NCBI GenBank assembly: GCA_903845115.1
Contig: CAIMWE010000137.1
Coordinates: 1 to 46,430, forward strand
DNA: 46,430 nt
Reading direction: 5' to 3'
From: an uncultured Acidobacteriota bacterium
GTDB lineage: Bacteria; Acidobacteriota; Thermoanaerobaculia; UBA5066
Shown here one piece after another: positions 8,751 to 35,902 of the stretch (within the stretch, counting starts at the first letter, position 1; each line of letters opens with the position of its first letter). Under the pieces are notes generated by a model. It ran no database searches, was not told the origin of the DNA, and worked only from the letters and a program-made list of their open reading frames with translations. A program made the position numbers and the translations under genes.

Positions 8751-9829
8751 ACGGTGGCGCCTCCTTCCCCGGCCGCGGGCGAGAAATACCGCCGCTGAAA
8801 CCAGAGCGCCACGTTGACGAGGCCGATCATCACCGGCACCTCGACGAGCGGCCCGATGACCGCCGCGAAGGCGGCCCCGGAGTCGATCCCGAAGACGGCG
8901 ACCGCGACGGCGATCGCCAGCTCGAAGTTGTTGCTGGCCGCGGTGAAGGCCAGGGTCGTCGTCTTGCCGTAGCCGGCCCCGGCCCTCCTCCCCATGAAGA
9001 AGGAGACCAGGAACATGACGACGAAGTAGACCAGCAGCGGGATGGCGATCCGGACGACGTCCATCGGGATCGAGACGATGAGCTTCCCTTTCAGGCTGAA
9101 CATCACCACGATCGTGAAGAGGAGGGCGACCAGGGTGATGGGGCTGATCCGGGGGACGACCTCCCGGTGGTACCACTCCCGGCCCTTCCACTTCACGAAG
9201 GCGAACCGGGTGAGGGCGCCCGCCAGGAAGGGAATGCCCAGGTAGATGAAGACGCTCTTCGCGATCTCCCCCATGCTGACCTTCACGACGCTTCCCTCGA
9301 GGCCGAACAGGGGAGGGAGGACCGTGATGAAGAACCAAGCGTAGACACTGTAGAAGAGCACCTGGAAGACGCTGTTGAAGGCCACGAGCCCGGCGGCGTA
9401 CTCGGTGTCCCCCTTCGCCAGCTCGTTCCAGACGATGACCATGGCGATGCAGCGGGCCAGGCCGATCATGATGAGACCGACCATGTAGTCGGGGTGGTCG
9501 CGGAGGAACACGATGGCGAGGAGGAACATCAGGATCGGTCCGATCACCCAGTTCTGGAGAAGGGAGATCCCGACGACCTTCCGGTCCCGGAAAACGTCCC
9601 CCATCTCCTCGTACCTCACCTTGGCGAAGGGGGGGTACATCATCAGGATCAACCCCGCGGCGATCGGGATGTTGGTCGTGCCGGCCTGGAACGAGTTGAT
9701 GAACCCCTCGATCCCCGGGACGAACGTGCCGATGGCCACCCCGGCCGCCATGGCGGCGAAGATCCAGAACGTGAGCCAGCGGTCGAGAAAGGAGAGTTTC
9801 CTGGAGATGCCGTCGGGCTTTGGAGCCAT
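8747..9829 (-). CDS. acr3: Arsenite efflux permease Acr3
   Basis: 360 residues, ten or so hydrophobic helices, the normal length of Acr3. The conserved transport cysteine is C127 ([18 protein letters not shown]) and the conserved glutamate E303 lies in [12 protein letters not shown]. It is an inner-membrane As(III) exporter of the BART superfamily. A GAGGAGG site lies 9 bases before the chosen ATG. The gene follows arsM by 56 bp and overlaps arsC by 4 bases. Confidence 0.95.
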
Positions 9830-19067: not shown

Positions 19068-22000
19068 ATGACCTCGAACCATTCTCTCTCGTCGTCCCGC
19101 GGACGGGCCGTCCCGCTCGTCCTCGCCGCCCTTTCCTCGGCCCTCGGCCTCCTCCCCGCACTCGCTCCAGGGACGAATCCCGCGAGGTCGAGCCTCGCAG
19201 CTTCCGTGGTCTGGGTCGTGCCGGCGAGCGCCCACGCGCCGGGGGCCAACGGAGCGAACTGGCGGACCGACCTCGAGGTGCACAACGCGGGAACGACGGC
19301 CGCGACGTACACGGTGGAGCTGCTCGTGCGGGACGCCGAGAACCTCGTGCCGCAGAGCCGGAGCTTCTCGCTCTCGCCGCAGCGCTCGGTCCGGTACGTG
19401 GACGCGCTCATGGGGATCTTCTCCTTCTCGGGCGCGGCGGCGCTTCGGATCACGGCGTCGTCGGACCTCGTGATGGTGACCAGCCGGACGTACAACCAGA
19501 TCGGCGAGAACCCGTGGAGCTTGCCGGAGGGGTCGTCGTTCGGGCAGTTCGTGCCAGCGCTGACGGAAGCGCAGGCGATCGCCTACGGGGAGGAGGGACG
19601 CCTGATCCAGCTGTCGCAGCAACTGGCGGCGACCCTGGCGGAGTTCCGGACGAACGTCGGGCTCGTGAACGCGACGGGCGCCGCGCTGGACGTGGCGGTG
19701 GACTTCTACCGGGCGGACGGCACCTACCTCGGGACGAAATCGGGGAGCGAGACCCGGCTCCGGGGATACGAGTTCCGGCAGCTGAACGAGGCGATGGGCG
19801 GGTGGGGCACGGTCGCCGACGGGTACGCGGTGATCAAGACCTCGACGGGTGGCGGGAAGGTCTACGCGTTCGCCACGGTGATCGACAACCACAACTCGGG
19901 CGACGCGTTCTTCATCCCCGCCGCCAAGAAGGCCTCCGGTTCGTCGCCGTCGCCGTCACCGACCGTCCAGGTCCCGACGGCGACGCCCACGAGAACACCG
20001 ACGGCGACGCCGACCGGTCCGGTCCCGACGGCAACCCCGACGAGAACGCCGACGCCGTCGGCGCTCGGGAACCTCTTCCCCTACCGCCCGTCGGGCTGGC
20101 AAAGCGCCATCGTCGCGGACGCGCAGGCAGGGAGGCGGACGACGACGCAGCTCTCCTCGCTCCTCACGACCTACGTGAGCTGGGCCGTGGCGAACGGGGG
20201 GCCGGCCGACATCCTCGGCAGGATGGAATTCGAGCTGCGGCTCGACGGCGCGCGCTACACGGGCTGGTACGTGGACGGCGGGCTCCCCGCTGGCTACTAC
20301 TTCACCCTCGAGGACTACGCCATTCCGGCCGGCCGGATCTCGCCGGGAACCCACACGCTCTCGATCATCGCGGACTACGCGGGCAGAATCTCCGAGACCA
20401 ACGAATCCGACAACACGGCGAGCGGAACGTGGGCGTGGTCGGCGTCCTTCATGGTCGCGGACGGCGAGGACGGGCCCGCGCCGACGGAAGCGCTGGGCGC
20501 CGCGGCAGTCCCGGCCCGCATCGTCCGCCGGCCGCTGGAGGGCTGCCCTCCTTCCCTCGCGGGATCCGTGACGTGGCTCCTGCCGGCGAGCGCGCACGCG
20601 CCGGGGGCAAACGGGGCGAACTGGAGGACGGACCTGGAGGTGCACAACGCCGGGACGTCCGCGGCCTCGTACACGGTGGAGCTGCTCGAACGGGACGCCG
20701 AGAACCTCGCGCCCCGGAGCCGGACGTACTCGTTGCCGCCGCAGCAGTCGGTGCGGCACGTGGACGCCCTCGTGGGGATCTTCTCCTTCTCGGGGGCCGC
20801 GGCGCTCCGGATCACGGCGTCGTCGGACCTCGTGATGCTGACGAGCCGCACGTACAACCAGATCGGCGCGAACCCGTGGAACCTCCCGGAGGGGTCGTCG
20901 TTCGGGCAGTTCGTGCCGGCGATGGCGGAGACGCAGGCGATCGCCTACGGGGAGGAGGGGCGGCTGATCCAGCTGACGCAGCAGCCGGCGGAGACGCTGG
21001 CGGGCTTCCGGACGAACGTCGGGCTCGTGAACGCGACGGGTGCGGCGCTGGACGTGACAGTGGACTTCTACCGGGCGGACGGGACCTACCTGGGGACCAA
21101 GTCGGGGAGCGAGACGCGGCTGAGGGGATACGAGTTCCGGCAGCTGAACGAGGCGATGGCGGAGTGGGGGACCGTCGACGACGGGTTCGCGGTCGTCAAG
21201 CCCGTTACGAGCGGCGGAAAGCTGTACGCGTTTGCGACGGTGATCGACAACCACAGCTCGGGCGACGCGTTCTTCATGCCGGCCATGAAAAAGGCCGCCG
21301 GCGCCCCTGCGCCGACGCCGACCGTGCCGGTCCCGACGGCCACGCCGACCCCCGGCCCGACGGCGACGCCGACGCCTGGAGCGACTCCAGCTCCCACGCC
21401 CACTCCCGCCCCGGAGAGCACCATCAACGGGCCCGGCGGATCGACCCTGTCGCTTCCGCGCGGCTCGGGCGCGACCGGGATGACGGTCTCGCTCTCGGCA
21501 GCGGACATCGCGCCGCTCCTCAGGGGAAGCGAGACGGCGGTCTCGTCCGCGGTGAAGGTCTCCCTCACCGGCCACGAGCCGCTCCTCGCGGACGGATATT
21601 TCCGGGTCACGCTGCCGGTCACGGGCACGGTCTCAGACCCGTCGCGTCTCATGGCGAAGGCCCTCCTGACCACCGGGGTCTCCTACCCGGTCCTCGGCAC
21701 GTACGATGGGGCCGCGAAGAAGTACTCCGTGGAGGTCCCTGCGCTCTGGAACGGCTGGGTCTTCGGGGTCGTCCTGGAGCCTGGCGTCAAGTACGTGTCC
21801 GCCGCGACGAAGCCCGAACGCGAGACGTCCGGGTGGCGGACGCCGGTGGACTGGGTGACCTGCGGATTCCGGGTCGTCACGCACACGGACGTATGGTCCG
21901 AAGCCAGGGTCACCTCCGACATCGTCCAGCCGGCGCAGTACGCGTGTCGCGCGCTCTGGGACGAGGGGTTCCGCTCTCCGCGCATGTGGATCGATCCGAG

Positions 22001-23612
22001 CACGCACCGGCGGGTGATCCACCTCGTCTCCGGAAGGGACCCGAACGGGCCCTTCACCTGGTTCTCTGCCTGCTACGACACCACCGGAACGTGGTGCAAT
22101 CCGGATTCGCCGAACTTCTCTGCCGTGGAGCTCACCGACGCGCAGTGCCTGTCACTGGGCCAGATCTACTACAACGTCGACGAGGCCGACGACTACGCGA
22201 AGGGACCGGCCCACATGTCTCCGGCGTCGCTCCTGATCCACGAGATGACCCACGCTTCGATGTTCGGGAACGACATCCGCCAGTTCTTCTACGCGCAGCC
22301 TCCTCCCAGCAGGACGACGTACACGCTCGCCGCCTGGTCCGAGGGCGGGGCGACCTTGCTCGGGAACACCTACCAGTACCGCGGGAATCGGCTCGGCAGC
22401 GGGATCGTCTACGTTCGCCTCAGCGAGCCCGAGCAGGAGCTCGACTCGCCGGCGGACTCGCCGGAGCCGCTCTGGGGGGCCTATACCAAGCAGGACTTGC
22501 TGGCATGGGTCGCGATGAAGTACGCGAACGGGAGCCTGACCTTCCTCCGCTCGATGTACGAGGCGATGGGCGACGCCACCGAGGGGCTCTACGTCATGAC
22601 CGGCAACGACTATCTGAAGCTCTATCGCGAGGCGGTGGACCACACCTTCGTCCAGAGGTTCGGAAAGGGTCTCTCGGACGTCTACCACGAGTTCGCTCTC
22701 GACCGTGGCTACCGCAGGTCCCCCGCCCTCGCGCTTCGCAGCGCCGACTCGGCGGCGATCGCCAACAAGTCCAACATGGGTCTCTTCCGCGATATCCAGG
22801 TCTGGCATCTGGAGACGGAGCCCTCGATCGAGGTGAACAACCTTCCCCCGCTCACGACCCGGCTGATCGTCGTCATCCTGCCCCAGGCTGTCCTCGCGAG
22901 GCCGACCTTCGACTTCAACGTCGTGTCGTCCGGCGCGGACCTCTCCTCGTCCGGCGTGCGCGTCACCGTCTTCCGGGAGGACGTCCACGGGGTCATGCTT
23001 CCCGGCGGGGAGATCCCGGTCACGAATGCGGCGCAGACCGTGAAGGTTCCGATGACGGCGCCCGTCGCGAGTCTCTCGATCTTCGTCTCGAACACGTCGG
23101 TCAGGGACCAGATGGCCACCGTGAAGCTGGGGTCGTTCGGGTACACGGTCTTCGTCGGCACCTGGGCGCCCGAGCACCAGCAGGGGAACGACTGCTACAC
23201 CCCGGCGAAGCTGCTCGCCCCGCCGGCTTTCATGTCCGTCTTCTCCCTTGACAAGGGGGCGCTCGCGGCCGATCCGGGCTACCTGGCGCTCCTCGACCCG
23301 AAATACGGATGGACGCTGAGCGGAAATGGCTCCATCAGCGGCGACACGGCGACGCTCCTGTACAAGACGGGCTGGATCGACTTCGACGACAAGGGCGTCG
23401 CGACGGCTCGGCTCGACCTCGACGTCTCGTGGTACGGCACCCGCAAGCCTGTGCCGCCGGCCTCGGCCGCACAGGGGGTGACCGAGTACTTCGAAGGCCC
23501 GTCGAACATCGTCTTCAAGACATCGGCGCCCCACGCTCCCTGCACGACGACGTTCACGTCACCTTCGGGCATGCTCGTGGGGCCTTGCCCGAAACCGCAC
23601 TGCGCTCCTTGA
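19068..23612 (+). CDS. Large secreted protein with duplicated domain and putative zinc metalloprotease domain
   Basis: 1514 residues. A signal peptide (about 1-45) is followed by module A1 (about 46-290), a Pro/Thr-rich linker (about 300-328), a CARDB-like beta domain (about 329-465, with YAGRISETNESDN), module A2 (about 500-744, closely similar to A1), a second Pro/Thr linker, a beta domain (about 785-910), and a C-terminal half with HEMTH (H1058, E1059, H1062) and a possible third zinc ligand E1092 in AWSEGGATLLGN, a gluzincin-like spacing. The A modules share blocks such as RTDLEVHNAG, FRTNVGLVNATG and YAFATVIDNH. Architecture suggests a secreted or surface hydrolase with adhesion-type modules. 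The protease family could not be named. AAGGAGGG precedes the ATG. Confidence 0.85.
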   Translation: MTSNHSLSSSRGRAVPLVLAALSSALGLLPALAPGTNPARSSLAASVVWVVPASAHAPGANGANWRTDLEVHNAGTTAATYTVELLVRDAENLVPQSRSFSLSPQRSVRYVDALMGIFSFSGAAALRITASSDLVMVTSRTYNQIGENPWSLPEGSSFGQFVPALTEAQAIAYGEEGRLIQLSQQLAATLAEFRTNVGLVNATGAALDVAVDFYRADGTYLGTKSGSETRLRGYEFRQLNEAMGGWGTVADGYAVIKTSTGGGKVYAFATVIDNHNSGDAFFIPAAKKASGSSPSPSPTVQVPTATPTRTPTATPTGPVPTATPTRTPTPSALGNLFPYRPSGWQSAIVADAQAGRRTTTQLSSLLTTYVSWAVANGGPADILGRMEFELRLDGARYTGWYVDGGLPAGYYFTLEDYAIPAGRISPGTHTLSIIADYAGRISETNESDNTASGTWAWSASFMVADGEDGPAPTEALGAAAVPARIVRRPLEGCPPSLAGSVTWLLPASAHAPGANGANWRTDLEVHNAGTSAASYTVELLERDAENLAPRSRTYSLPPQQSVRHVDALVGIFSFSGAAALRITASSDLVMLTSRTYNQIGANPWNLPEGSSFGQFVPAMAETQAIAYGEEGRLIQLTQQPAETLAGFRTNVGLVNATGAALDVTVDFYRADGTYLGTKSGSETRLRGYEFRQLNEAMAEWGTVDDGFAVVKPVTSGGKLYAFATVIDNHSSGDAFFMPAMKKAAGAPAPTPTVPVPTATPTPGPTATPTPGATPAPTPTPAPESTINGPGGSTLSLPRGSGATGMTVSLSAADIAPLLRGSETAVSSAVKVSLTGHEPLLADGYFRVTLPVTGTVSDPSRLMAKALLTTGVSYPVLGTYDGAAKKYSVEVPALWNGWVFGVVLEPGVKYVSAATKPERETSGWRTPVDWVTCGFRVVTHTDVWSEARVTSDIVQPAQYACRALWDEGFRSPRMWIDPSTHRRVIHLVSGRDPNGPFTWFSACYDTTGTWCNPDSPNFSAVELTDAQCLSLGQIYYNVDEADDYAKGPAHMSPASLLIHEMTHASMFGNDIRQFFYAQPPPSRTTYTLAAWSEGGATLLGNTYQYRGNRLGSGIVYVRLSEPEQELDSPADSPEPLWGAYTKQDLLAWVAMKYANGSLTFLRSMYEAMGDATEGLYVMTGNDYLKLYREAVDHTFVQRFGKGLSDVYHEFALDRGYRRSPALALRSADSAAIANKSNMGLFRDIQVWHLETEPSIEVNNLPPLTTRLIVVILPQAVLARPTFDFNVVSSGADLSSSGVRVTVFREDVHGVMLPGGEIPVTNAAQTVKVPMTAPVASLSIFVSNTSVRDQMATVKLGSFGYTVFVGTWAPEHQQGNDCYTPAKLLAPPAFMSVFSLDKGALAADPGYLALLDPKYGWTLSGNGSISGDTATLLYKTGWIDFDDKGVATARLDLDVSWYGTRKPVPPASAAQGVTEYFEGPSNIVFKTSAPHAPCTTTFTSPSGMLVGPCPKPHCAP
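19205..19936 (+). repeat. Internal repeat copy 1 (module A1)
   Basis: First copy of a roughly 730-bp direct repeat within the secreted protein gene. It is recognisable at nucleotide level over long stretches, for example around TTCGGGCAGTTCGTGCC and CGGACGAACGTCGGGCTCG, and keeps the reading frame. Confidence 0.85.
20567..21298 (+). repeat. Internal repeat copy 2 (module A2)
   Basis: Second copy, offset 1362 bp (454 codons) from the first, colinear and without frame disruption. Differences are scattered, many at third codon positions, which points to an intragenic duplication kept similar by selection or gene conversion. Confidence 0.85.
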
Positions 23613-26059: not shown

Positions 26060-26878
26060 ATGTGGAAGAAGTGGGGTCCCTGGCTCGGTGCCGTCGTCAT
26101 CACCCTGGCCTCCGTCGTCTGGCAGCGCCGGACCGGGCCGACCTATCCCGCCCGCGGGACCGTCCGCGTCGGCGGCTCGGAGATCCGCCTCGCCCTGACG
26201 AGGAGCCACGGCGGCGAGGGAGACCAGCCGGTCCGGATCGAGACGAAGGACGTTGCCGTCGGCGGCATGGTCGTCTGGCGCCGGTTCCCGACGGACGAGC
26301 CGTGGAAGACGCTGGCGATGGCCCGCAACGGAGACCGGCTCGAGGCGGTCCTGCCGCACCAGCCTCCCGCGGGGAAGCTGGAGTACCAGGTGAAGCTGAT
26401 GAAGGGCTCGGAGTCGGCGACGTTCCCTCCGCGCCCCGCCGTCACGCGCTTCAAGGGGGACGTGAACCCGTTCGTCCTCGTGCCGCACGTCCTGTGCATG
26501 TTCGTCGGGATGTTCCTCTCGTCGGTCACCGGCCTGAAGGCGTTGATCCCCGGCGAGAAGCTGAACCGCCTCGCCGGCCACACGCTCCTCCTCCTCTGCG
26601 TGGGCGGCGGCATCCTCGGCCCGCGGGTCCAGAAGGAGGCCTTTGGCGCCTACTGGACCGGCATCCCGTTCGGCTGGGACCTGACCGACAACAAGACCCT
26701 GATCGCGATCGCCGCATGGGTGGTCGCGGCGTGGATGATCCGGGGAGGCCGGAACCTCCGCCTCCCCGTGATCCTGGCGGCCCTGGTCACCCTGGCCGTC
26801 TACTGCATCCCCCACAGCGTGTGGGGGTCCCAGATCGACTGGAAGAAGGTGCCGGCGGCTACCTCTTCCACTTCCTGA
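26060..26878 (+). CDS. Polytopic membrane protein, unknown function
   Basis: 272 residues: an N-terminal membrane anchor (WLGAVVITLASVVW), a roughly 100-residue soluble beta-rich domain (VRVGGSEIRLALTRSHGGEG to PAVTRFKGDVNPF), then about four helices (for example FVLVPHVLCMFVGMFLSSVTG). No family recognised. It diverges from the asparagine-synthetase-like gene by 57 bp. The last codons (VPAATSSTS and stop) lie within the antisense of a duplicated dehydrogenase gene 3' end, so the natural C-terminus may have been replaced. Confidence 0.75.
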   Translation: MWKKWGPWLGAVVITLASVVWQRRTGPTYPARGTVRVGGSEIRLALTRSHGGEGDQPVRIETKDVAVGGMVVWRRFPTDEPWKTLAMARNGDRLEAVLPHQPPAGKLEYQVKLMKGSESATFPPRPAVTRFKGDVNPFVLVPHVLCMFVGMFLSSVTGLKALIPGEKLNRLAGHTLLLLCVGGGILGPRVQKEAFGAYWTGIPFGWDLTDNKTLIAIAAWVVAAWMIRGGRNLRLPVILAALVTLAVYCIPHSVWGSQIDWKKVPAATSSTS

Positions 26879-26983
26879 GGATCTCCACCACGAGATCGCC
26901 GATCCGGAGGAGGTTCTCCTTGCTGGAGACTCCGAGGTGGGGCGTCATGACGACGCTGGGAGCCGAGAGGGAGGGGCTCTTCG
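26847..26983 (-). repeat. Left copy of 137-bp island-flanking direct repeat (dehydrogenase 3' end)
   Basis: Matches 34876-35012 with no gaps and 12 differences by direct alignment (about 91% identical), the first 47 bases being exact. It encodes, on the minus strand, about the last 41 residues of the dehydrogenase plus 12 bases past its stop. The two copies bracket the accessory genes between 27 and 34.9 kb. Confidence 0.9.
26859..26983 (-). pseudogene. 3' fragment of a 2-hydroxyacid (PGDH-like) dehydrogenase gene
   Basis: Reads ...KSPSLSAPSVVMTPHLG...SSKENLLRIGD...EILRKWKR, against KSPLLSAPNVVMTPHIG in the intact gene at 34888-35763. Upstream of this the similarity stops and the reading frame runs into unrelated sequence. 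Several differences change amino acids, as expected for a decaying fragment. It is a non-functional remnant left by insertion or duplication. Confidence 0.85.
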
Positions 26984-27250: not shown

Positions 27251-27863
27251 CCCAGGGCGCCTCTGCGTCGCGGATCAGCCCGGGAGGTACAAGGAGCTTC
27301 GCGAGCCGGTCTTCGAGTGACGCGACATCTTCGGGGCAAAGCCTCCGAATCCGATCGTATCGGGCGGCAGCTTCCAGAGTCAGCCGCTTTCGCCCCTCAC
27401 CAGGCTCCTCCACGACCCCGCGCTTCCTCGCGAAGGGCATGAAGTAGGTCTCTTTGGCGTGGGGCTCGGTCCGAACATCCTGCCAGCTCCAGCCGGCCGG
27501 CAAGTCGAGTCCCGCGAGCACCCAGACCTCGATCTCTTGCCAGGCGTTCTCAGCGAGAAAGTGCCGTCCAGGAGGAAGAGCTTCCCGAGCCTTCTCCTCG
27601 ATGGAATCCAGCGCCGAACGCCGGCCGTCCTGACCGTCTCGGTCCACGATCAAGAGGAAGATATCGACCATTCCCCGATAGAGGTCGAGGATCTCTTCGA
27701 TCCGGTTCCAGTTCGTCGCCTGGTCGACGCCTCCCAGGACCGGGTCCTGGCAGACCCGGACAATCGCGCGGGGCCTGCCCAGCCTCTTGAACATGGCCTC
27801 GAGGATTGGTTTGAGGACGTACTGGTCGAGCCGCGGATCCTCCGGGATCACCAGCACTCTCAA
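27216..27863 (-). CDS. Toprim-like (DUF4276/RloB-type) partner of the AAA ATPase
   Basis: About 215 residues. Acidic motifs fit a minimal Toprim-like nuclease fold: VIPEDPRLDQYVLKP near the N-terminus, LLIVDRDGQDGR (DxD) and AWQEIEVWVLAG. The start is uncertain: TTG at 27863 overlaps the ATPase stop by TTGA, and GTG at 27857 is the alternative; an ATG at 27911 would overlap by 52 bases. Pairs of an OLD/AAA ATPase with a Toprim or Toprim-like protein include PARIS and AbiL-type abortive-infection modules, so a phage-defence effector is the most likely role. Which named system, if any, it matches is unknown. Confidence 0.7.
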   Translation of the reverse strand: MRVLVIPEDPRLDQYVLKPILEAMFKRLGRPRAIVRVCQDPVLGGVDQATNWNRIEEILDLYRGMVDIFLLIVDRDGQDGRRSALDSIEEKAREALPPGRHFLAENAWQEIEVWVLAGLDLPAGWSWQDVRTEPHAKETYFMPFARKRGVVEEPGEGRKRLTLEAAARYDRIRRLCPEDVASLEDRLAKLLVPPGLIRDAEAPWGGSQVPSSEAT

Positions 27864-29134
27864 GGAGTCGTCTTTCGGTCCTCCGCGAAGGCGACGGCAT
27901 CTTCGAGCCACCCGGAGGCGTGTAGCCGGGCGAGGTCATGCCCAGTCAGCACGCGGGCAGCTTCCGGGATGTCCATGATCCGTCGAATTCGCGCCTCCGG
28001 CTGGTTGGCCAGGCGGTAGCACAGCGACGCGCTCTCCCTGGCCTTGGCCCCGAGGAACCCTAGCAGCTGGGGCGAGTGCGACGTCGCCACCATCTGGATG
28101 TTCCCCTGGGCGACCTTCTGCTCGATCAGGGCGAGGAGCAGGTTCAATCGGGTCGGGTGGATTCCGTTCTCCAGCTCTTCGAAGAAATAGAAGCGGGCTG
28201 GCTGCGTCCCCAGGAGGGCGGCGATCATGGCCAGAAACCGCAGGGTGCCATCCGAAGCGCTGTAGGCCGAGGTCCGTTGCCCGTTCCCTTCCACCAGGGT
28301 CAGCAAGATCCGTCCCGTCTGATCCGGAGGAAAGTCGAATTCCGACGCATCCAGGGGCGTCAGCTCGCGGACCCAGTCGACGAGTGCTTGTTTCAGCTCG
28401 GGCTTCTCGCAAATCGCCTGGAGGACCGAAGAGAGGTTCTCCCCCCGGTCCCCGAGAACGGTCTGGCCCGGCAGCGAGGGGAGGCGCATGGCCTCTGGCG
28501 AGAGGTCCAGGAAGCGCATCGAGGCAAGGGCCGACATCGCCTGCCGAACCAGTTCCTTCACTTTGGGCAGCTTCACGTCCGGGTGCTCGCCGATCTGCGA
28601 AAGGACCGGCCTCTCGTTGATGAAGTTCACTGTTGGACCGACCCAGCCCTTCTGCGCCTCCTTGCGAAGCCGGACGCCGAGGTGCAACGGATCGGTCTGA
28701 GGCGGGGCGTTCGAGTCGGGATGGGAGTCGAAAACCGGGCCTTTCCCTTCGATCAGAAGGCGTTCCGCTTTGACGCGAGGCGGGCTCCCATTTGGCCCGA
28801 CCGCCACCTCGATTCGATAGCTGAGCGTGCGCGGCTGCCCGTTCTCGGCGCCGTCGAACGCCATCTCCAGGGCAAACGTCGGGGCCTGCATGAAAGCCGC
28901 TTCTCTCGTGCCGCCGCGGATTCCCTTCCACTGGAGGACGCCGCCCTCGGCCCATTTCTCTCCGATGATCTCCGCCAGGGTGTAGCCGCGAGAGACCCCG
29001 TGCAGAAAGCGGAAGGCGTCCCTGAGATTGCTCTTGCCGGAAGCGTTCGTCCCGACCAGCAGCGTCAGAGGACCCAGGGCCAGCTCAGCCTCCCGGAAGT
29101 TCTTGAATCGCTCCAGCTTCAGCTGTTTCAGCAC
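27860..29134 (-). CDS. AAA/OLD-family ATPase (defence-like)
   Basis: 424 residues from a GTG start. Typical SMC/ABC-like ATPase of the AAA_21/AAA_15 group: LKLERFKNFREAEL at the N-terminus, Walker A GTNASGKSN (28-36), a coiled or variable middle, and a C-terminal Walker B ARFYFFEELENGIHP followed by ATSHSPQLLGFL (His switch). These proteins act as sensors or motors with small nuclease partners in anti-phage systems. It overlaps the Toprim-like gene by 4 bases, so the two are one unit. Base composition is visibly less G+C-biased than in neighbouring core genes, consistent with horizontal transfer. Confidence 0.88.
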   Translation of the reverse strand: MLKQLKLERFKNFREAELALGPLTLLVGTNASGKSNLRDAFRFLHGVSRGYTLAEIIGEKWAEGGVLQWKGIRGGTREAAFMQAPTFALEMAFDGAENGQPRTLSYRIEVAVGPNGSPPRVKAERLLIEGKGPVFDSHPDSNAPPQTDPLHLGVRLRKEAQKGWVGPTVNFINERPVLSQIGEHPDVKLPKVKELVRQAMSALASMRFLDLSPEAMRLPSLPGQTVLGDRGENLSSVLQAICEKPELKQALVDWVRELTPLDASEFDFPPDQTGRILLTLVEGNGQRTSAYSASDGTLRFLAMIAALLGTQPARFYFFEELENGIHPTRLNLLLALIEQKVAQGNIQMVATSHSPQLLGFLGAKARESASLCYRLANQPEARIRRIMDIPEAARVLTGHDLARLHASGWLEDAVAFAEDRKTTP

Positions 29135-29368: not shown

Positions 29369-31906
29369 GTGAGCAAGGAAGCGGGCCCGGGGACGTCCGG
29401 CGGTGCAAGGAAGAGACGGAAGGGGACGGGGCGGGCGGCCCCGAGGGTCTCGCGGCACAGCAGGCCCGAGCATCTCTCGCCGGAAGAGTGGCAGCGGGCG
29501 CTTCGGAGGCAGGCGGGAGAGGAGGCCCCCTTCGCGGTAGAGAAGACCGGCGGCGAGCGGGTCTTCTCGGAGTATCTCGTCGCGAATCCTGCCAGCCGCA
29601 GGACCTACCGGGTGGCGATCCGCGGCTCCGAGCCCGGAGTGAACTTCTGCTCGTGTCCCGATTTCGCGACGAACCTCCTCGGGACCTGCAAGCACGTGGA
29701 GTCGGTCCTGGCGGGGATCCGGAAGAAGCGGGGAGGCACCCGGGCGCTCGAAGGCGGATTCCATCCTGCCCACAGCAGCGTGACCGTCGTCTATGGAGAG
29801 CGGAGGCGCGTCCGGCTCCGCCTCGCGGCTGCGGCGCCGGCAGCGCTGAGCCGGCGCGCCGCCCGCCTCTTCGACCGGGAGGGCTGGCTGGCCGAGGAGG
29901 CCTTCCCGGGATTGCGGCCGTTCGTGGCCGAAGCCGCGGCCGTGTCACACGACGTCCGCGTTTACGAGGACGTGTGGCGCCTCGTCGAGGAGCGGGCTGC
30001 CGCTGAAGCTCGCCGGCTGGCCCTCGATCGGGCCTTTCCGGAGGGAACCGCGAGCCCGGTCTTCGAGACGCTGCTGAAGACCTCTCTGCCGCCGTATCAG
30101 CGAGAGGGCGCCCTCTTCGCCTGCCGGGCCGGGCGCTCGATCCTCGCGGACGAGATGGGGCTGGGGAAGACGATCCAGGCGATCGCCGCCGCCGAGATCG
30201 GGAGCCGGTTCCTCGGCGTGGAGAAGGTCCTGGTGGTCTGCCCCGCCTCCCTCAAGCACCAGTGGCAGGACGAGATCGGGCGGTTCTGCGGCCGGACCGT
30301 CGAGGTCGTCGGCGGGGCGCGCCGGACGCGCCGGGAGATCTACTCGGCGCCGTCGTTCTTCAAGGTGACGGCCTACGACACCGTCCACTTCGACCTTCCC
30401 CTGATCGAGGCCTGGGCCCCGCAGCTCGTCATCCTCGACGAAGCGCAGCGGATCAAGAACTGGAGCACCCGGGTGGCCCGGAGCGTCAAGCGGATCGAGT
30501 CGCCGATGGCGCTCGTCCTGACGGGGACCCCGCTCGAGAACCGCCTGGAGGAGCTGGCGTCGATCGTCCAGTTCGTCGACCGGCATCGGCTGGGGCCGGC
30601 CTGGCGCCTGAGACAGGAGCACCAGCTGGTGGAGGAGGGGACGACGCGCGTCGTCGGGTATCAGAATCTCGACAGGCTCGGTGAGACGCTGGCCCCGGTC
30701 CTCCTTCGCCGGCGCAAGCGGGAGGTCCTGCCGGAGCTTCCCGAGCGGACGACGAAACGGCTCTTCGTCACGCTGACGCCGGAGCAGCGCGACCTCCACG
30801 AGGAGAACGCGATGAACGCCGCCCGGATCGTGGCCAAGTGGAGGCGGACCAAGTTCCTCTCGGACGCCGATCAGAAGCGCCTGACGATTGCCCTCCAGAA
30901 CATGAGGATGGTCTGCGACGACGTTCATCTCGTCGAGCCGAAGAGGCGGAGCGGACGCAAGGTGGACGAGGTCCTGACTCTTCTTTCCGACCTGCTGGAG
31001 TCCGAGGGGACGAAGGCCGTGGTCTTCAGCCAGTGGGTTCGGATGCACGACCTCCTCGGGGAGCGGCTCGAGGCCGAGGGATGGGGGCACGTCTTCCTGC
31101 ACGGGGGCGTCCCGTCCTCGAACCGGGGCGCGCTGGTCCGCCAGTTCCGGGACGACCCGCAATGCCGGGTCTTCCTCTCCACCGACGCCGGCGGGACGGG
31201 GCTGAACTTGCAAGCGGCGTCGGTCGTGGTCAACGTCGACCTTCCGTGGAACCCCGCGGTCCTCGAGCAGAGGATCGGCCGCGTCCACCGGATGGGGCAG
31301 CGGCGGAGCGTCCAGGTCTTCGACTTTGTCGCCGAGCGGTCGATCGAGGAGGGGATGCTCTCGCTCCTCGGCTTCAAGACGTCGCTCTTCGCGGGGGTGC
31401 TCGACGGCGGGGATCCGAAGGTCCTCCTCGGAGGAAGCCGGCTGGATCGCTTCATGAAGGGGGTCGAGTCGCTCACCGCCCCGCTGGCGGCGGGAGAGGC
31501 TCCGACGGGGCCCGGGGCTCCGTCCGAGCCGCTTCCGGTCCCGAAGGCGCCGGGCGGGGCCGGCGAGGCGATCGGGAATGCTCCCTTGCCCGAGAAGGTC
31601 GAGACGGTCGCGACGGCCGGGCCGCCTGGCGACCGAAGTCCGACCGTGTCAAGCCCGACCGTGTCGGGCCCTGCGGGCCTTCCGCAGGAAGCGCTGGCCG
31701 GACTTTTCCGCGCCGGAGCGAGCTTCCTGACCCAGCTGGCCGAGGCGGCGGACGCGCTCGCCCGGGGCGAGAAGGCGCGGTCGGGGAACGTGTCGCTGGA
31801 CCGGGACGCCACGGACGGTCAGGCCGTTCTCACCGTCCGGCTGGGGGAATCGGACGTATTCCTCGCGGCGCTGCGGGCGCTCACGGGCGGTGCGGGGACT
31901 TCATAG
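29369..31906 (+). CDS. SWIM-domain SNF2/DEAD-like helicase
   Basis: 845 residues from a GTG with GGAGGA 6 bases upstream; the open frame extends far upstream but that part is antisense to the ATPase gene. A SWIM zinc finger, C94-x-C96-x10-C107-x-H109, is followed by the two RecA-like lobes: DEMGLGKT (261-268), DEAQ box (LVILDEAQRIKNW, about 357), TGTPLEN, and the C-terminal lobe with VVFSQWVRMHDLL, STDAGGTGLNLQAA and the QRIGRVHRMGQ motif VI. A low-complexity Pro/Ala-rich tail ends the protein. Bacterial SWIM-SNF2 proteins are DNA translocases, often in accessory or defence regions; a specific system is not evident here. Confidence 0.92.
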   Translation: MSKEAGPGTSGGARKRRKGTGRAAPRVSRHSRPEHLSPEEWQRALRRQAGEEAPFAVEKTGGERVFSEYLVANPASRRTYRVAIRGSEPGVNFCSCPDFATNLLGTCKHVESVLAGIRKKRGGTRALEGGFHPAHSSVTVVYGERRRVRLRLAAAAPAALSRRAARLFDREGWLAEEAFPGLRPFVAEAAAVSHDVRVYEDVWRLVEERAAAEARRLALDRAFPEGTASPVFETLLKTSLPPYQREGALFACRAGRSILADEMGLGKTIQAIAAAEIGSRFLGVEKVLVVCPASLKHQWQDEIGRFCGRTVEVVGGARRTRREIYSAPSFFKVTAYDTVHFDLPLIEAWAPQLVILDEAQRIKNWSTRVARSVKRIESPMALVLTGTPLENRLEELASIVQFVDRHRLGPAWRLRQEHQLVEEGTTRVVGYQNLDRLGETLAPVLLRRRKREVLPELPERTTKRLFVTLTPEQRDLHEENAMNAARIVAKWRRTKFLSDADQKRLTIALQNMRMVCDDVHLVEPKRRSGRKVDEVLTLLSDLLESEGTKAVVFSQWVRMHDLLGERLEAEGWGHVFLHGGVPSSNRGALVRQFRDDPQCRVFLSTDAGGTGLNLQAASVVVNVDLPWNPAVLEQRIGRVHRMGQRRSVQVFDFVAERSIEEGMLSLLGFKTSLFAGVLDGGDPKVLLGGSRLDRFMKGVESLTAPLAAGEAPTGPGAPSEPLPVPKAPGGAGEAIGNAPLPEKVETVATAGPPGDRSPTVSSPTVSGPAGLPQEALAGLFRAGASFLTQLAEAADALARGEKARSGNVSLDRDATDGQAVLTVRLGESDVFLAALRALTGGAGTS

Positions 31907-31951: not shown

Positions 31952-32013
31952 TCAGCCGACCCAGAGGTCCGCGAGGACGATCTCGATCTCGCCGAACGGG
32001 GCGGCCCGGACCA
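31952..32013 (-). repeat. Left copy of 62-bp direct repeat (Uma2 gene 3' end)
   Basis: Identical over 62 bases to 34659-34720. Encodes the last 19 residues (VRAAPFGEIEIVLADLWVG region) and stop of a Uma2-family protein on the minus strand. It lies 45 bp after the helicase gene and 20 bp before the left end of the IS element. Confidence 0.9.
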
Positions 32014-32033
32014 GCCTGTGCGGGATATACTTT
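31952..32033 (-). pseudogene. Uma2-family endonuclease C-terminal remnant, cut by IS left end
   Basis: About 26 codons remain, reading into the IS inverted repeat at 32034. The final APFGEIEIVLADLWVG matches the longer remnant at 34659-34820. It is too short to be functional. Confidence 0.6.
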
Positions 32034-32051
32034 GGGAGCGGCTCTTTTGGA
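32034..32051 (+). repeat. IS left terminal inverted repeat
   Basis: GGGAGCGGCTCTTTTGGA. Pairs with the right end 34256-34273 with one mismatch at the fourth base. Confidence 0.8.
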
Positions 32052-32224
32052 ATGCCCGTCAAGCGACTGATTCCGCATGAGATAACGATTGTGATCTGAA
32101 GGAGAAATCGGTCTGTTTCACGGGATATCGAGGAAGCCGATCGATAACTTTCTTATCTTGCGACTGTGTCGCGACTGGACATTTCGTCGTTGGTTGAGTA
32201 CCTTGTCGTGGGAGGGACGGCGCG

Positions 32225-33121
32225 ATGGGAGCGACGAACGCGGCGAAGGTCTTCCTCGGGAAGGCGGTCAGCGCACGGGAACTGGCCACGACCCGGGAGG
32301 TGGTTGCGACGTATCGGGGGCTGAGCCGGATGGAGCTGGCGGCAACGGTCTGTGAGCTGCTTGGCTGGATGCGGGGAAGTGGTCGGCCGAAGGCTCGCGA
32401 GTGTCGAGAGTGGCTCGAGAATCTGGAAGCCGCCGGCGAGCTGACCCTTCCGCAGAAGCGGACGGGACGCCCGGTCGGCTCGAAGACGTCGATCCCGGCG
32501 GAAAGCCAGCCGGGAGGAGCACAGGAGGTCACTGGAAGCGCGGGCGACCTGGGACCGATCCGGGTCGAGCGGATCACGGATGGAGCAGGCCGGCTGCGAT
32601 TTAGGGAGCTGATCGGGCACCACCACTACCTTGGCTATCGGGTGCCGTACGGCGCCCAGCTGCGGTACCTGGTCCTGAGCTCACGGCGGGTGAGGGAAGA
32701 GCTGGGCTGCCTGCTGTTCTCGAGTGCCGCGTGGCGCCTGGCGCCTCGGGACCAGTGGATCGGGTGGGATGATTCGACGCGGAGCCGGAATCTGGCGCAG
32801 GTGGTGTGCAACAGCCGGTTCCTGATCCTGCCATGGGTGCGGGTGAAGAACCTGGCGAGCACGATCCTGTCGCGGGCGATGGGGGTGCTGGCAGCGGACT
32901 GGCGGGAGGTTTACGGTGTGGAGCCGTTGCTGGTGGAGACGTTCGTGGACGAGAGCCGGTTCACGGGGACGTGCTACCGGGCAGCGAACTGGATCGAGCT
33001 GGGGAGCACGACAGGTCGCGGCCGGATGGATCGAAGGACCGAGCGCAAGGGGATGGCCCCCAAGCGAATCTTCGTCTACCCGCTGCGTCGTGATAGCCGA
33101 CGACGCTTGGTGGAGGGCTGA
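32225..33121 (+). CDS. DUF4338 (DruA-like) protein carried by the IS
   Basis: 298 residues; GGGAGGGA precedes the ATG. The N-terminal 110 residues are charged and helical; the C-terminal two thirds match DUF4338: FRELIGHHHYLGYRVPYGAQ, CLLFSSAAWRLAPRDQWIGW, then NSRFLILPWVRVKNLAS, ETFVDESRFTGTCYRAANW and GSTTGRGRMDR. DUF4338 defines DruA of the Druantia defence system, but here none of the other Druantia genes is present and the gene lies inside the IS ends, directly before the transposase. It is more likely an IS-encoded accessory or passenger protein. The reading frame appears full length. Confidence 0.85.
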   Translation: MGATNAAKVFLGKAVSARELATTREVVATYRGLSRMELAATVCELLGWMRGSGRPKARECREWLENLEAAGELTLPQKRTGRPVGSKTSIPAESQPGGAQEVTGSAGDLGPIRVERITDGAGRLRFRELIGHHHYLGYRVPYGAQLRYLVLSSRRVREELGCLLFSSAAWRLAPRDQWIGWDDSTRSRNLAQVVCNSRFLILPWVRVKNLASTILSRAMGVLAADWREVYGVEPLLVETFVDESRFTGTCYRAANWIELGSTTGRGRMDRRTERKGMAPKRIFVYPLRRDSRRRLVEG

Positions 33122-33124
33122 GCG

Positions 33125-34203
33125 ATGGGCGCCGAGGCCCGGCCGGCCGAAGTTGAGCCCTTCGAGCGATCGGGGGAGGCGTTCGGGGATATCGTCGGGT
33201 TTGCGGGATCGCGAGAGGCCGACGAGATGACGGAGAGCGAGCTGGAACGAGAGCTGGAGGAGCGAGTCCGGGAGCTGAAACGTCAGCTCTTGCAGGACCA
33301 TCTGGACAGGCGCGGCGGCGGAGCAGCGATCGGGCCGGTACGGGATCGTGCCGGGCACGAGCGAAGCGAGGCGAGGGAGCACACGCGCAAGCTGAGGACG
33401 ACGTTTGGAGACGTGGAGGTCCGGCGCTGGGGGTACGGCGGAGAAGAGCTGGACAGTCTTCATCCTCTCGACGGAGAGCTGAATCTGCCGCCGGAGCTGT
33501 ATTCGCTCGAGCTGCGGCGGCGGGTGGCGCGCGAGGTAGCGCGGGGCTCGTTCGAGGAGGCCATCGAGGCGGTGGGAGAGACGACGGGGGTCCACGTGCC
33601 GAAACGCCAAGCCGAAGAGCTTGCGGCGCGGGCGGCGGTGGACTTCGAGGAGTTCTATACCGAAAAGCAGGCGCGCTCAACGCTCGAGACGACGCAGGAG
33701 CCGATCCTGGTGCTGAGCGTGAACGGCAAAGGGATCGCATGCGCCGGAAGGATCTGCGCAACGGATGCACCTGCTCCTCTCGGGGCCGCGCGCCCTACGT
33801 CGCGGCGGGAATGCGGCGCAGCGCTACCCTTCGCAACCTCGCGCCGGACCAGCGCAAGGCCGTCGACAAGGCGGCAAACTACCTGCTGAAGTACAAAACG
33901 CACCTGCGCTACGACAGCTATCTCGCCCGCGGCTATCCGATCGCAAGCGGCGTGATCGAAGGTGCCTGTCGCCATCTGGTCAACATCCGGATGAACCGAA
34001 CCGGCGCCCGCTGGAGCCTCCAAGGAGCCGAGGCCGTCCTACAGCTTCGCGCCCTCGTCAAGTCCGGCGACTTCGACGACTACTGGAAGTTCCACGAAGC
34101 CCGCGAGCTCGAGCGCAACCACCTCAACGCATACGCGGAGCAGCGGCTCCCCCGCATTCAAGCGCCCGCCAGCCGCCGCCAGACTCTCCGCCTGGTCAAG
34201 TAG
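33125..34203 (+). pseudogene. ISKra4-family transposase, frameshifted and internally deleted
   Basis: The first part (33125 to about 33738) reads as a normal ISKra4 N-terminus: LKRQLLQDHLDRRGG, TTFGDVEVRRWGYGG, SLHPLDGELNLPPELYSLELR and VARGSFEEAIEAVGETTG. At LVLSVNGKGI (about 33735) one base is missing and the frame moves to that of 33739-34203, which continues MRRKDLRNG and then jumps to the family C-terminus, RSATLRNLAPDQRKAVDKAA, PIASGVIEGACRHLV and RMNRTGARWSLQGAEAVL. The roughly 150 central residues expected between, holding most of the catalytic core, are absent. The element cannot move by itself. Confidence 0.85.
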
Positions 34204-34255
34204 TCGGCCTTGACTCACCCGTCATGTCATTCTCTGCAAGCTTCCGCTCCGCCGC

Positions 34256-34273
34256 TCCAAAAGAGCCGCACCC
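34256..34273 (-). repeat. IS right terminal inverted repeat
   Basis: TCCAAAAGAGCCGCACCC, reverse complement of the left end with one mismatch. It ends exactly where the PIN-domain reading frame begins. Confidence 0.8.
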
Positions 34274-34645
34274 GATCGATACCACGACATCGCCCGGAAT
34301 TTCGCTCGCGAGCTGCGAGCCTCCGGGAGGGTCCTCGTGACGACGCAGGCTGTTCTGGCGGAGGTCGGGGACTCTTTTTTCCGGCCTCCCTACCGCGCTG
34401 CGGCGACCCGTCTTCTGAGTGCGCTGCAACGAGATCCCAGCGTCCTCGTCTTGCCCGTCGACACCGGACTGTTCGACCGGGGCTGTCGCCTCTTCTTCGA
34501 TCGGCCTGAAAAGAGCTGGGGACTGACCGACTGCATCTCGTTCGTGGTGATGCAGGAACGGGGCATTCAGGATGCGCTCACGGCCGACCAGCATTTCGAG
34601 CAGGCCGGATTTCGGGCCCTCCTGCGGGGAAGCCTCGGAGCCTGA
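34274..34645 (+). pseudogene. PIN-domain (VapC-like) toxin, 5' end removed by the IS
   Basis: The frame runs from the first base after the IS end: DRYHDIARNFARELRASGRV, then TTQAVLAEVGDSFF and WGLTDCISFVVMQERGIQ with the conserved Asp of the PIN active site, then ALTADQHFEQAGFRALL. About 123 residues remain; the N-terminal strand with the first catalytic Asp (usual LDTS/LDTA motif), roughly 20 residues, is missing. A GTG at 34337 could start a shorter product. No cognate antitoxin gene is visible. Confidence 0.75.
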
Positions 34646-34658
34646 ACGGTGGCCTGAG

Positions 34659-34720
34659 TCAGCCGACCCAGAGGTCCGCGAGGACGATCTCGATCTCGCC
34701 GAACGGGGCGGCCCGGACCA
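34659..34720 (-). repeat. Right copy of 62-bp direct repeat (Uma2 gene 3' end)
   Basis: Identical to 31952-32013. Beyond it, to the right, the Uma2 reading frame continues, so this copy is nearer the original gene. Confidence 0.9.
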
Positions 34721-34820
34721 CCTCGTCTGCCTCGTGAGCGGCCAAGAGCGTCCAGAGGCCCGCTGAAAGCTCGTAGACCTCGAGCGTCCTCGCGGCCGGA
34801 TCGACGAGCCAGAGATGCCC
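34659..34820 (-). pseudogene. Uma2-family (DUF820) restriction-endonuclease-like remnant
   Basis: 53 codons and stop: GHLWLVDPAARTLEVYELS, then LWTLLAAHEADEVV and APFGEIEIVLADLWVG. The GHLWLVDPxxRTLEVY block is typical of the PD-(D/E)XK-like Uma2 family. An in-frame TAG at 34821-34823 precedes it and the upstream two thirds of the gene are missing. Confidence 0.75.
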
Positions 34821-34875: not shown

Positions 34876-35012
34876 AGGTGCCGGCGGCTACCTCTTCCAC
34901 TTCCTGAGGATCTCCACCACGATGTCGCCGATCCGGAGGAGGTTCTCCTTGCTGGAGCCCCCGATGTGGGGCGTCATCACGACGTTCGGGGCCGAGAGGA
35001 GCGGGCTCTTCG
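34876..35012 (-). repeat. Right copy of 137-bp island-flanking direct repeat
   Basis: 3' end of the intact dehydrogenase gene plus 12 bases of its 3' flank; ungapped match to 26847-26983 with 12 differences. Confidence 0.9.
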
Positions 35013-35763
35013 GGTCGGGCGGGTCCGAGAAGAAGACGTCGGTCCCGTAGGCCCGGACTTTCCCTGACTTCAGCGCCTCCGCGAGGTCCTCCTCGACGAT
35101 CACCTTGCCGCGGGCGGTGTTGATCAGGATCACTCCGTCCTTCATCTTCTCGATGGCGTGCTTGTTGATCATCCCCTTCGTCTCGGGGGTGATCGGCAGG
35201 TGGATCGAGATGTAGTCGGAGCGGGCGAAGAGCTCGTCGTCCTCGTCGACCATCTCGGCCAGGGCGTGGTTCGCCAGGTAGTGGTCGTGGGCGATCACCG
35301 TCATCCCGAAGGCCTGGGCCCGCCGCGCCACCTCGGTCCCGATCAGGCCGGCGCCCAGGAGGCCGAGCGTCTTCCCGTAGAGCTCGGTCCGCTTCAGCTC
35401 CTTCTTCAGCCACTTCCCTTCCTTCATGCCGACGTGGCCTTCCACGAGCCGGTTGGGGATGGCCAGCATCAGGGCCATCGCCAGCTCCGCCACCGCCACC
35501 GACGAGGCGCGGGGGGTGTTCTTGACGTCGATCCCCTTCTCGCGGCACGCCTCGATATCGACGTTGTCGAGCCCGACGCCTCCCCGGATGACGAGCTTGA
35601 GGTTGGGGGCGCCGGCGAGGTATTCGCGGGTGACCTTGGACTTCGACCGGATCAGCAGGACGTCGGCCTCGGCCAGGCGGGCCGGGTCGGAGAACGTCTC
35701 TCCGAGCGTGGCCAGACGGCCGGGCAACGAGTCGTCGAAAGCATCGGCGATCATGATTTTCAT
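34888..35763 (-). CDS. D-isomer-specific 2-hydroxyacid dehydrogenase, short PGDH type
   Basis: 291 residues. NAD-binding motif GLLGAGLIGTEVARRA (GxGxxG at 137-142), substrate residues in VIRGGVGLDNVDI, the ARG loop NTARGKVIVEEDL and the catalytic histidine in VVMTPHIGGSS. The length fits the short 3-phosphoglycerate dehydrogenases without an ACT domain; other 2-hydroxyacid substrates are possible. AAAGGAG precedes the ATG; a TAAAAT box at 35795-35800 may be the -10. It is divergent from proBA. Its 3' end is duplicated 8 kb away at 26.9 kb. Confidence 0.9.
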   Translation of the reverse strand: MKIMIADAFDDSLPGRLATLGETFSDPARLAEADVLLIRSKSKVTREYLAGAPNLKLVIRGGVGLDNVDIEACREKGIDVKNTPRASSVAVAELAMALMLAIPNRLVEGHVGMKEGKWLKKELKRTELYGKTLGLLGAGLIGTEVARRAQAFGMTVIAHDHYLANHALAEMVDEDDELFARSDYISIHLPITPETKGMINKHAIEKMKDGVILINTARGKVIVEEDLAEALKSGKVRAYGTDVFFSDPPDPKSPLLSAPNVVMTPHIGGSSKENLLRIGDIVVEILRKWKR

Positions 35764-35902
35764 CTGTCTCACTCCTTTGGGAACCCTCGGCCCGATTTTA
35801 CGTCCGACGGGCGAGTGGGGGCGGATCCATCGGGCCTCCCGCGCCACGGACGCTAAGATCTCCCCCGGGTCGAAGCCTCGTGCCCGGCCCCGGGGGAGAT
35901 CG

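What the first reader, a model, noticed from the sequence alone, without database searches (positions are those of the whole stretch)
31952..34720. Nested second direct repeat, also a minus-strand gene 3' end
62 identical bases from the 3' end of a Uma2 gene lie on both sides of the IS and PIN remnant (31952-32013, 34659-34720), nested inside the 137-bp repeats. Both nested pairs copy the 3' end of a minus-strand gene to the left side. A shared mechanism that duplicates gene ends during insertion is an interesting possibility.
Basis: partly seen in the sequence, partly recalled or inferred. Interest (0 to 1): 0.55.

Follow-up and report, generated by a model that had tools for sequence, protein, structure and literature searches.

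The report
Gene ends duplicated around toxin genes
A toxin-gene remnant sits between two identical copies of a neighbouring gene's last 62 bases, and other toxin-antitoxin genes in this bacterial family carry similar duplicated gene ends, which suggests that such genes can enter a chromosome without a transposase while leaving the neighbouring gene intact.

Summary
62/62 identical bases (31952-32013, 34659-34720) hold the stop codon and last codons of a Uma2 gene remnant. They flank a DruA-type insertion sequence and a PIN-toxin remnant. The genome has no third copy, and its other Uma2 genes are only about 70% alike, so this is not a conserved paralogue tail.

The pattern recurs. In this genome, direct repeats flank 5 of 49 scorable PIN/ParE toxin loci against 11 of 1200 random windows. 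In several cases the repeat is a host gene's 3' end: mutL (98 bp), livF, fdhD-like, a kinase. A same-family genome (G009) has a PIN module behind a permease gene whose end (80 bp) is repeated on the far side. Its congener G005 has one copy and no module: a filled/empty pair.

Best reading: a PIN toxin-antitoxin module inserted beside Uma2 with a target duplication of at least 62 bp; an IS later wrecked it. This resembles 'insertion with long target duplication', known for restriction-modification genes. The bias to gene 3' ends may be selection rather than targeting. No empty site was found for the window itself, and the enzymology is unknown.

The parts
31952..32013 (-). displaced 62-bp copy of the Uma2 3' end (stop codon plus last codons), between the SNF2 gene and the IS
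   Evidence: 62/62 identical to 34659-34720
34659..34720 (-). gene-side 62-bp copy, the end of the Uma2 remnant
34659..34820 (-). 3' remnant of a Uma2 gene, truncated on its 5' side
   Evidence: 53 aa, 73% identical to residues 135-186 of a PF05685 protein; homology stops at 34820; PF05685 itself only at E 1.3e-4, below cut-off
34274..34645 (+). PIN (VapC-type) toxin remnant without its N-terminus; no antitoxin seen
   Evidence: PF01850 32.6 bits, profile positions 18-119; also found by the whole-genome PIN scan
32014..32033 (.). 20 bp between the displaced Uma2 end and the IS; possibly what is left of the far end of the PIN module (inference)
32034..34273 (+). insertion sequence with GGGTGCGGCTCTTTT-type ends; no target-site duplication here
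   Evidence: ends shared with database relatives; 9-bp duplications in 2 of 6 relatives with both ends
32225..33121 (+). DruA-domain ORF of the IS
   Evidence: PF14236 E 8e-49
33125..34203 (+). second IS gene, split into two overlapping frames (33125-33889, 33739-34203); transposase by recall, no Pfam match
26847..26983 (-). displaced copy of the serA-like gene's 3' end (outer pair, left), decaying
   Evidence: 91% over 137 bp; 9 of 12 differences derived in this copy
34876..35012 (-). gene-side serA 3' end (outer pair, right)
34888..35775 (-). serA-like hydroxyacid dehydrogenase gene (start codon not settled; name from sequence, no Pfam call), divergent from proB as in relatives
   Evidence: orthologues at 76-83% in 11 same-family genomes; proB-like match next to it in L052 and L054
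26060..26875 (+). gene X; its last codons and stop are read out of the serA fragment
   Evidence: homologues align up to residue 260-271 of 272
27860..29134 (-). AAA_21 ATPase, defence-like, inside the outer pair
   Evidence: PF13304; PADLOC PDC-M07A E 1e-65
29369..31906 (+). SNF2-type helicase gene (start not settled) inside the outer pair
   Evidence: PF00176, PF00271

Best explanation
The 62-bp pair is what remains of a long target duplication made when a small PIN-type toxin-antitoxin module entered the chromosome just downstream of a Uma2 gene. The gene side kept one copy of its 3' end; the second copy stayed with the old downstream flank, beyond the module. Later an insertion sequence landed in the PIN gene and DNA on its left side was lost (antitoxin, PIN N-terminus), leaving 20 bp next to the displaced copy. 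Shown: the repeat, the truncated PIN, the IS, the recurrence around toxin-antitoxin loci, and one filled/empty pair in the family. Inferred: that the window pair arose this way, the order of events, and the way of entry. The likeliest ways of entry are capture of module DNA at a break whose long staggered ends were filled in, or single crossover with a circle carrying the module and a gene end. Such insertions would be kept because a duplication reaching past the stop codon leaves the gene intact, and because losing the module by recombination between the repeats would be punished by the toxin.
For: Exact repeat with abrupt ends. PIN remnant between the copies. Recurrence in the same genome: mutL 3' end, 98 bp at 98%, on both sides of an antitoxin/PIN pair; livF (83+33 bp), fdhD-like (235 bp plus collinear pieces) and a kinase-like gene (783 bp) around PIN modules. 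Flanking direct repeats in 5 of 49 scorable toxin windows against 11 of 1200 control windows, Fisher p 2e-4; counting only repeats of 45 bp or more, 5 of 49 against 1 of 1200, p 4e-7. Direct orientation only: 0 inverted among the 48 pairs found in 1.43 Mb (the detector was tested), 0 in 40 own loci, 0 in 30 loci of relatives. Filled/empty pair: G009 permease end duplicated around an antitoxin/PIN pair, G005 single copy running straight into G009's right flank. Outer fragment decays while the gene does not: 9 of 12 differences derived in the fragment, 1 in the gene, 2 undecided.
Against: No empty site for the window itself: SNF2 lies in other contexts in relatives and the only held same-genus genome ends inside gene X. 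Most toxin loci (44 of 49) show no such repeat. One of the five own-genome hits (C132) is a REP-like element and one (C5) copies a stretch 93 bp before the gene's end, so not all are gene 3' ends. The G005 empty site could also be a collapse back to one copy. Assembly error cannot be excluded for a 100% identical 62-bp repeat in a 305-contig draft. The PIN module here is broken, so its original extent is guessed.
Confidence: 0.62

Rival explanations
1. Plain tandem duplication followed by decay: a stretch from inside Uma2 to some point beyond its 3' end was duplicated, and one copy was then whittled down by deletions and the IS; the toxin gene came in by chance or was already there.
For: All pairs found are in direct orientation. 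At C247 and C130 the duplication includes downstream DNA, at C247 in collinear pieces, as a tandem duplication would.
Against: In the clean cases (mutL, the G009 permease, the window) the repeat covers little more than the gene end, and in the first two the intervening DNA is a whole toxin-antitoxin module; G005 against G009 shows module and second copy absent together.
Confidence: 0.2
2. Site-specific integration at gene 3' ends by a lost or in-trans integrase, the repeats being att sites.
For: Gene 3' ends are classical att sites (recalled) and the displaced copy lies on the expected side; a 50-bp repeat that looks like a tRNA 3' end on C198 may be such a case in this genome.
Against: No integrase among the proteins scanned between the inner copies; a different gene each time, repeat lengths from 62 to 783 bp.
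Confidence: 0.06
3. IS-driven rearrangement: the DruA-type IS made the duplication by one-ended transposition or by recombination with another copy.
For: The IS lies between the copies and has no 9-bp target duplication here.
Against: I saw no IS between the repeats in the gene maps of the other cases (C105, C196, C247 and the G009 locus); the IS is single-copy in this genome; 4 of 6 IS relatives also lack the 9-bp duplication.
Confidence: 0.06
4. Assembly artefact of a draft metagenomic genome.
For: 100% identity over 62 bp; 305 contigs.
Against: Most sister cases differ by 2-9% between the copies and so are not graph artefacts.
Confidence: 0.05

Closest known systems
Insertion with long target duplication of restriction-modification genes (Nobusato et al. 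2000; Furuta et al. 2010; both seen only as cited in PMC3874152, PMC3031569 and PMC1643837)
   Same: Direct repeats 'in the order of 100 bp', variable in length, around an addiction module that moves unlinked to any known mobile element (PMC3874152, passages read)
   Different: Here the modules are PIN/ParE toxin-antitoxin pairs, several of the repeats are gene 3' ends, and the host is an uncultured lineage rather than Helicobacter
ParE/ParD-like module behind the MaOC1 gene of Microcystis (PMC7935541, passages read)
   Same: A toxin-antitoxin pair downstream of a gene, fenced by two identical 152-bp direct repeats
   Different: There the first repeat begins 14 bp after the stop codon and holds an inverted repeat; it is not the gene's coding end
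Integrative elements at tRNA or protein-gene 3' ends (recalled)
   Same: Displaced gene 3' end on the far side of the insert
   Different: No integrase seen; a different gene each time, lengths 62-783 bp
DruA-domain insertion sequences (ISKra4/ISAzba1-like by recall)
   Same: Ends GGGTGCGGCTCTTTT and DruA ORF as in database relatives
   Different: Second ORF split; no target duplication; the family name comes from no call

Membership tests
Insertion with long target duplication (addiction modules) | direct repeat of tens to hundreds of bp on both sides of the insert | tested here: met
   62/62 bp; no third copy in the genome
Insertion with long target duplication (addiction modules) | empty site with one repeat copy in a close relative | tested here: inconclusive
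   not found for the window; found for the same pattern in the family, G009 against G005
Insertion with long target duplication (addiction modules) | insert is an addiction module without its own transposase or integrase | tested here: inconclusive
   PIN remnant without antitoxin; the IS inside is read as secondary
Insertion with long target duplication (addiction modules) | module is a restriction-modification system, as in the original reports | tested here: not met
   PIN toxin remnant, no methyltransferase among the proteins scanned between the copies
Integrase-driven element at a gene 3' end | tyrosine or serine integrase in the insert | tested here: not met
   the ORFs read as genes between the inner copies are the IS genes and the PIN remnant
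Integrase-driven element at a gene 3' end | common core sequence at the junctions | tested here: inconclusive
   repeats come from different genes, 62-783 bp; no formal motif search was run across them
DruA-domain insertion sequence | shared terminal inverted repeats | tested here: met
   GGGTGCGGCTCTTTT-type ends in the window and in the 6 database relatives with both ends found
DruA-domain insertion sequence | 9-bp target-site duplication | tested here: not met
   window none; 2 of 6 relatives have it
VapC/PIN toxin | PIN domain over the family cut-off | tested here: met
   PF01850 32.6 bits, cut-off 23.6, profile 18-119
   other own-genome Uma2 matches 69-71%

The most novel reading that the evidence does not exclude
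Toxin-antitoxin modules in this family spread as transposase-free mobile units: they enter next to genes with a duplication of tens to hundreds of bp that often spans the host gene's stop codon, and the toxin then protects the unstable duplication from collapse. This would extend to toxin-antitoxin genes what has been described for restriction-modification genes and give them a common way of moving.
Probability: 0.35. Interest if true: 0.72.

Novelty: new variant of a known kind. Interest (0 to 1): 0.52.

Why it matters
How chromosomal toxin-antitoxin modules move when they carry no transposase is an old open question. A countable signature (gene 3' end, module, second copy of the gene end), with an empty site in a congener, makes it testable in any clade with several sequenced strains, and would tell whether toxin-antitoxin and restriction-modification genes use the same route.

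Tried and rejected
Paralogue-tail explanation: rejected. Empty site at the window: not obtainable; SNF2 lies in other contexts in relatives, the same-genus genome G001 ends inside gene X, and no serA match was found in it. Empty site at mutL: relatives have other DNA behind mutL. serA terminator hairpin next to the right-hand copy: not more stable than shuffles (z -0.89), so not used as evidence for which copy is native. The absence of a target duplication at the IS was at first taken as proof of an adjacent deletion; dropped as proof, because 4 of 6 IS relatives lack the 9-bp duplication too. D1 (19193/20555) is an internal repeat of one gene, irrelevant. REP-like repeats on C132, C20 and C253 flank toxin loci but are another kind of sequence; C132 is nevertheless counted among the 5 of 49. 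C25 and C5 copies (51 and 54 bp) come from 107 and 93 bp before the gene end and do not include the stop codon. (protein 2) and one search used a wrong reading frame for the Uma2 remnant and are superseded. In one search gene X was first translated in a wrong frame; redone.

Dropped before counting: 57 toxin loci were examined (47 PIN, 10 ParE; the window's own PIN left out) and 8 of them, cut by contig ends, were not scored, leaving 49. The wider windows (C130, C243, C198) were looked at after the fact and are in no statistic. In relatives, 30 of 51 PIN matches had loci; direct repeats of 26 bp or more were found in 6 of the 30, two of these being one pair seen twice, and 2 of the 5 distinct pairs are gene 3' ends. 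Of 48 repeat pairs in 1.43 Mb, the contig-start, tandem, array and same-gene or paralogue pairs were set aside by eye.

Full report
What is there. Window 31952-32013 and 34659-34720 are identical over 62 bases and unlike each other on both sides. Read on the minus strand they are the stop codon and the last codons of a Uma2 gene. The right-hand copy continues into a Uma2 remnant (53 aa, 73% identical to the C-terminal part of a full-length Uma2 of genome G009; PF05685 for the full-length protein) that itself breaks off at 34820. Between the copies lie 20 bp, an insertion sequence (32034-34273) with a DruA-domain ORF, and a PIN-domain remnant that lacks its N-terminus and has no antitoxin that I could see. 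The outer pair is a serA-like 3' end, 137 aligned bases at 91%. The Uma2 remnant lies about 55 bp from the gene-side serA end.

Not a conserved tail, not chance. The genome's other Uma2 matches are 69-71% identical and extend through the region, whereas this pair is 100% identical and stops dead. A third copy was not found in the 5.85 Mb held. In the outer pair, 9 of 12 differing bases in the aligned coding part are derived in the left copy when judged against 11 relatives, 1 is derived in the gene and 2 are undecided, and several change conserved residues. The left copy is thus a decaying duplicate of a working gene.

The pattern occurs elsewhere. I scanned 1.43 Mb of the genome (52 contig pieces including the window) for repeats within 25 kb: 48 pairs, all direct, none inverted (detector checked). 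Setting aside tandem, contig-start, array, same-gene and paralogue pairs by eye, several of the rest enclose or touch toxin-antitoxin-type genes: ParE (C5), AbiEii (C14, C35), a GNAT gene with a weak ribbon-helix-helix match (C253); C25 has a DUF2442 ORF. I then took the PIN and ParE loci of the whole genome (48 and 10). Leaving out the window's PIN, 57 were examined and 49 had full flanks: 5 of 49 had a direct repeat of at least 26 bp and 88% on both sides, against 11 of 1200 random windows (Fisher p 2e-4); with repeats of 45 bp or more, 5 of 49 against 1 of 1200 (p 4e-7). Two of the control hits are the GNAT locus on C253, probably a toxin-antitoxin locus itself.

What is duplicated. On C105 the last 90 bp of mutL (stop codon included) plus 8 bp are repeated behind an antitoxin/PIN pair, 98 bp at 98%. 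On C196 it is the end of a livF-like gene, on C247 of an fdhD-like gene with further collinear pieces, on C130 (wider window, found afterwards) of a kinase-like gene with 783 bp at 94%. The names livF, fdhD, kinase and serA are mine from the sequence; only mutL, the permease, Uma2, PIN, ParE and AbiEii were checked against Pfam. The toxin may point with or against the duplicated gene. On C5 and C25 the copied stretch ends 93 and 107 bp before the gene's end, so the stop codon is not always included.

An empty site in the family. In G009, same family but another genus, an 87-aa ORF (antitoxin by its look) and a PIN gene follow a permease gene (PF00528) whose last ~70 bp plus about 9 bp are repeated on the far side (80 bp at 95%). 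In its congener G005 the permease end occurs once and runs straight into what in G009 lies beyond the second copy: G009 1-1162 matches G005 at 94.8% and G009 1941-2304 at 92.9%, overlapping by about 100 bp in G005. G011 carries the permease and the start of the module before its contig ends. Both G009 copies share a base that G005 and G011 lack, so the second copy was made from, or later converted by, the local gene. In G002 the end of one PIN gene is repeated around the next toxin-antitoxin pair (175 bp at 93%).

How it most likely works. Shown: module plus one extra copy of the neighbouring gene end is the difference between filled and empty in the G009/G005 comparison. Inferred: the window's inner pair is the same kind of scar around a PIN module that an IS later destroyed. 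The entry step is unknown. Fill-in of a widely staggered break and single crossover with a circle carrying a gene end both give this structure and cannot be told apart here. The concentration on gene 3' ends does not need aiming: an insertion with duplication leaves the gene intact only if the duplicated stretch reaches past the stop codon (or past the promoter and start, or lies outside the gene). The concentration on toxin-antitoxin genes can be survival: direct repeats collapse by recombination, and collapse that deletes an addiction module is punished.

Known or new. 'Insertion with long target duplication' was described for restriction-modification genes. [quoted passage not shown] see also PMC3031569 and PMC1643837 (passages). 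Of the original papers, one was not held and one was seen only as a citation. A toxin-antitoxin pair between 152-bp direct repeats is reported in Microcystis (PMC7935541, passages), the first repeat starting 14 bp after a stop codon. My searches (listings, open-licence library only) showed me no report of gene-3'-end duplications around toxin-antitoxin modules, but subscription journals are not covered. I file it as a new variant of a known kind.

Limits. The window itself has no empty site. The only held same-genus genome ends inside gene X and gave no serA match. Most toxin loci (44 of 49) carry no such repeat. Collapse rather than absence could explain G005. The outer pair encloses defence-like genes (AAA_21 with PADLOC PDC-M07A, SNF2) and could be the same kind of event, but is not shown to be. 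Whether the inner event came before or after the outer one is open; 0% against 9% divergence suggests that it is younger.

Noticed in passing
L377 (G000:C198) 645-694 and 4010-4059 in contig coordinates: A 50-bp direct repeat (98%) that looks like a tRNA 3' end encloses 3.3 kb with a ParE gene and a 698-aa ORF and no evident integrase; tRNA identity judged by eye.
   Followed up: no
L284 (G000:C20), 3859-bp contig: A row of small toxin-antitoxin-like genes (judged by eye) separated by about 110-bp repeats beginning GGGGTCAGGTCTTTAGGTTGTAGG; an array-like contig.
   Followed up: partly
L375 (G000:C132) 24620-26628 in contig coordinates: Three 141-144 bp repeats (95-97%) with complementary ends GGGGTCAGGGCTG..., around a PIN gene; REP/MITE-like.
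   Followed up: partly
window 19068-23612: A 1514-aa surface-type protein with an internal 300-bp repeat; absent from the corresponding place in the same-genus genome G001 (L261), where the MFS-like gene and the asparagine-synthase-like gene lie close together.
   Followed up: partly
window 32225-34203: Single-copy insertion sequence with a DruA (Druantia) domain ORF; database relatives of its DruA ORF occur in many phyla (80 loci kept of 327 confirmed).
   Followed up: partly
L363 (G000:C243) 8802-8869 and 11412-11479 in contig coordinates: A 68-bp stretch of a PIN gene is repeated with 100% identity at the 3' end of an unrelated gene 2.6 kb away; here the fragment lies on the 5' side of its source gene.
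   Followed up: no
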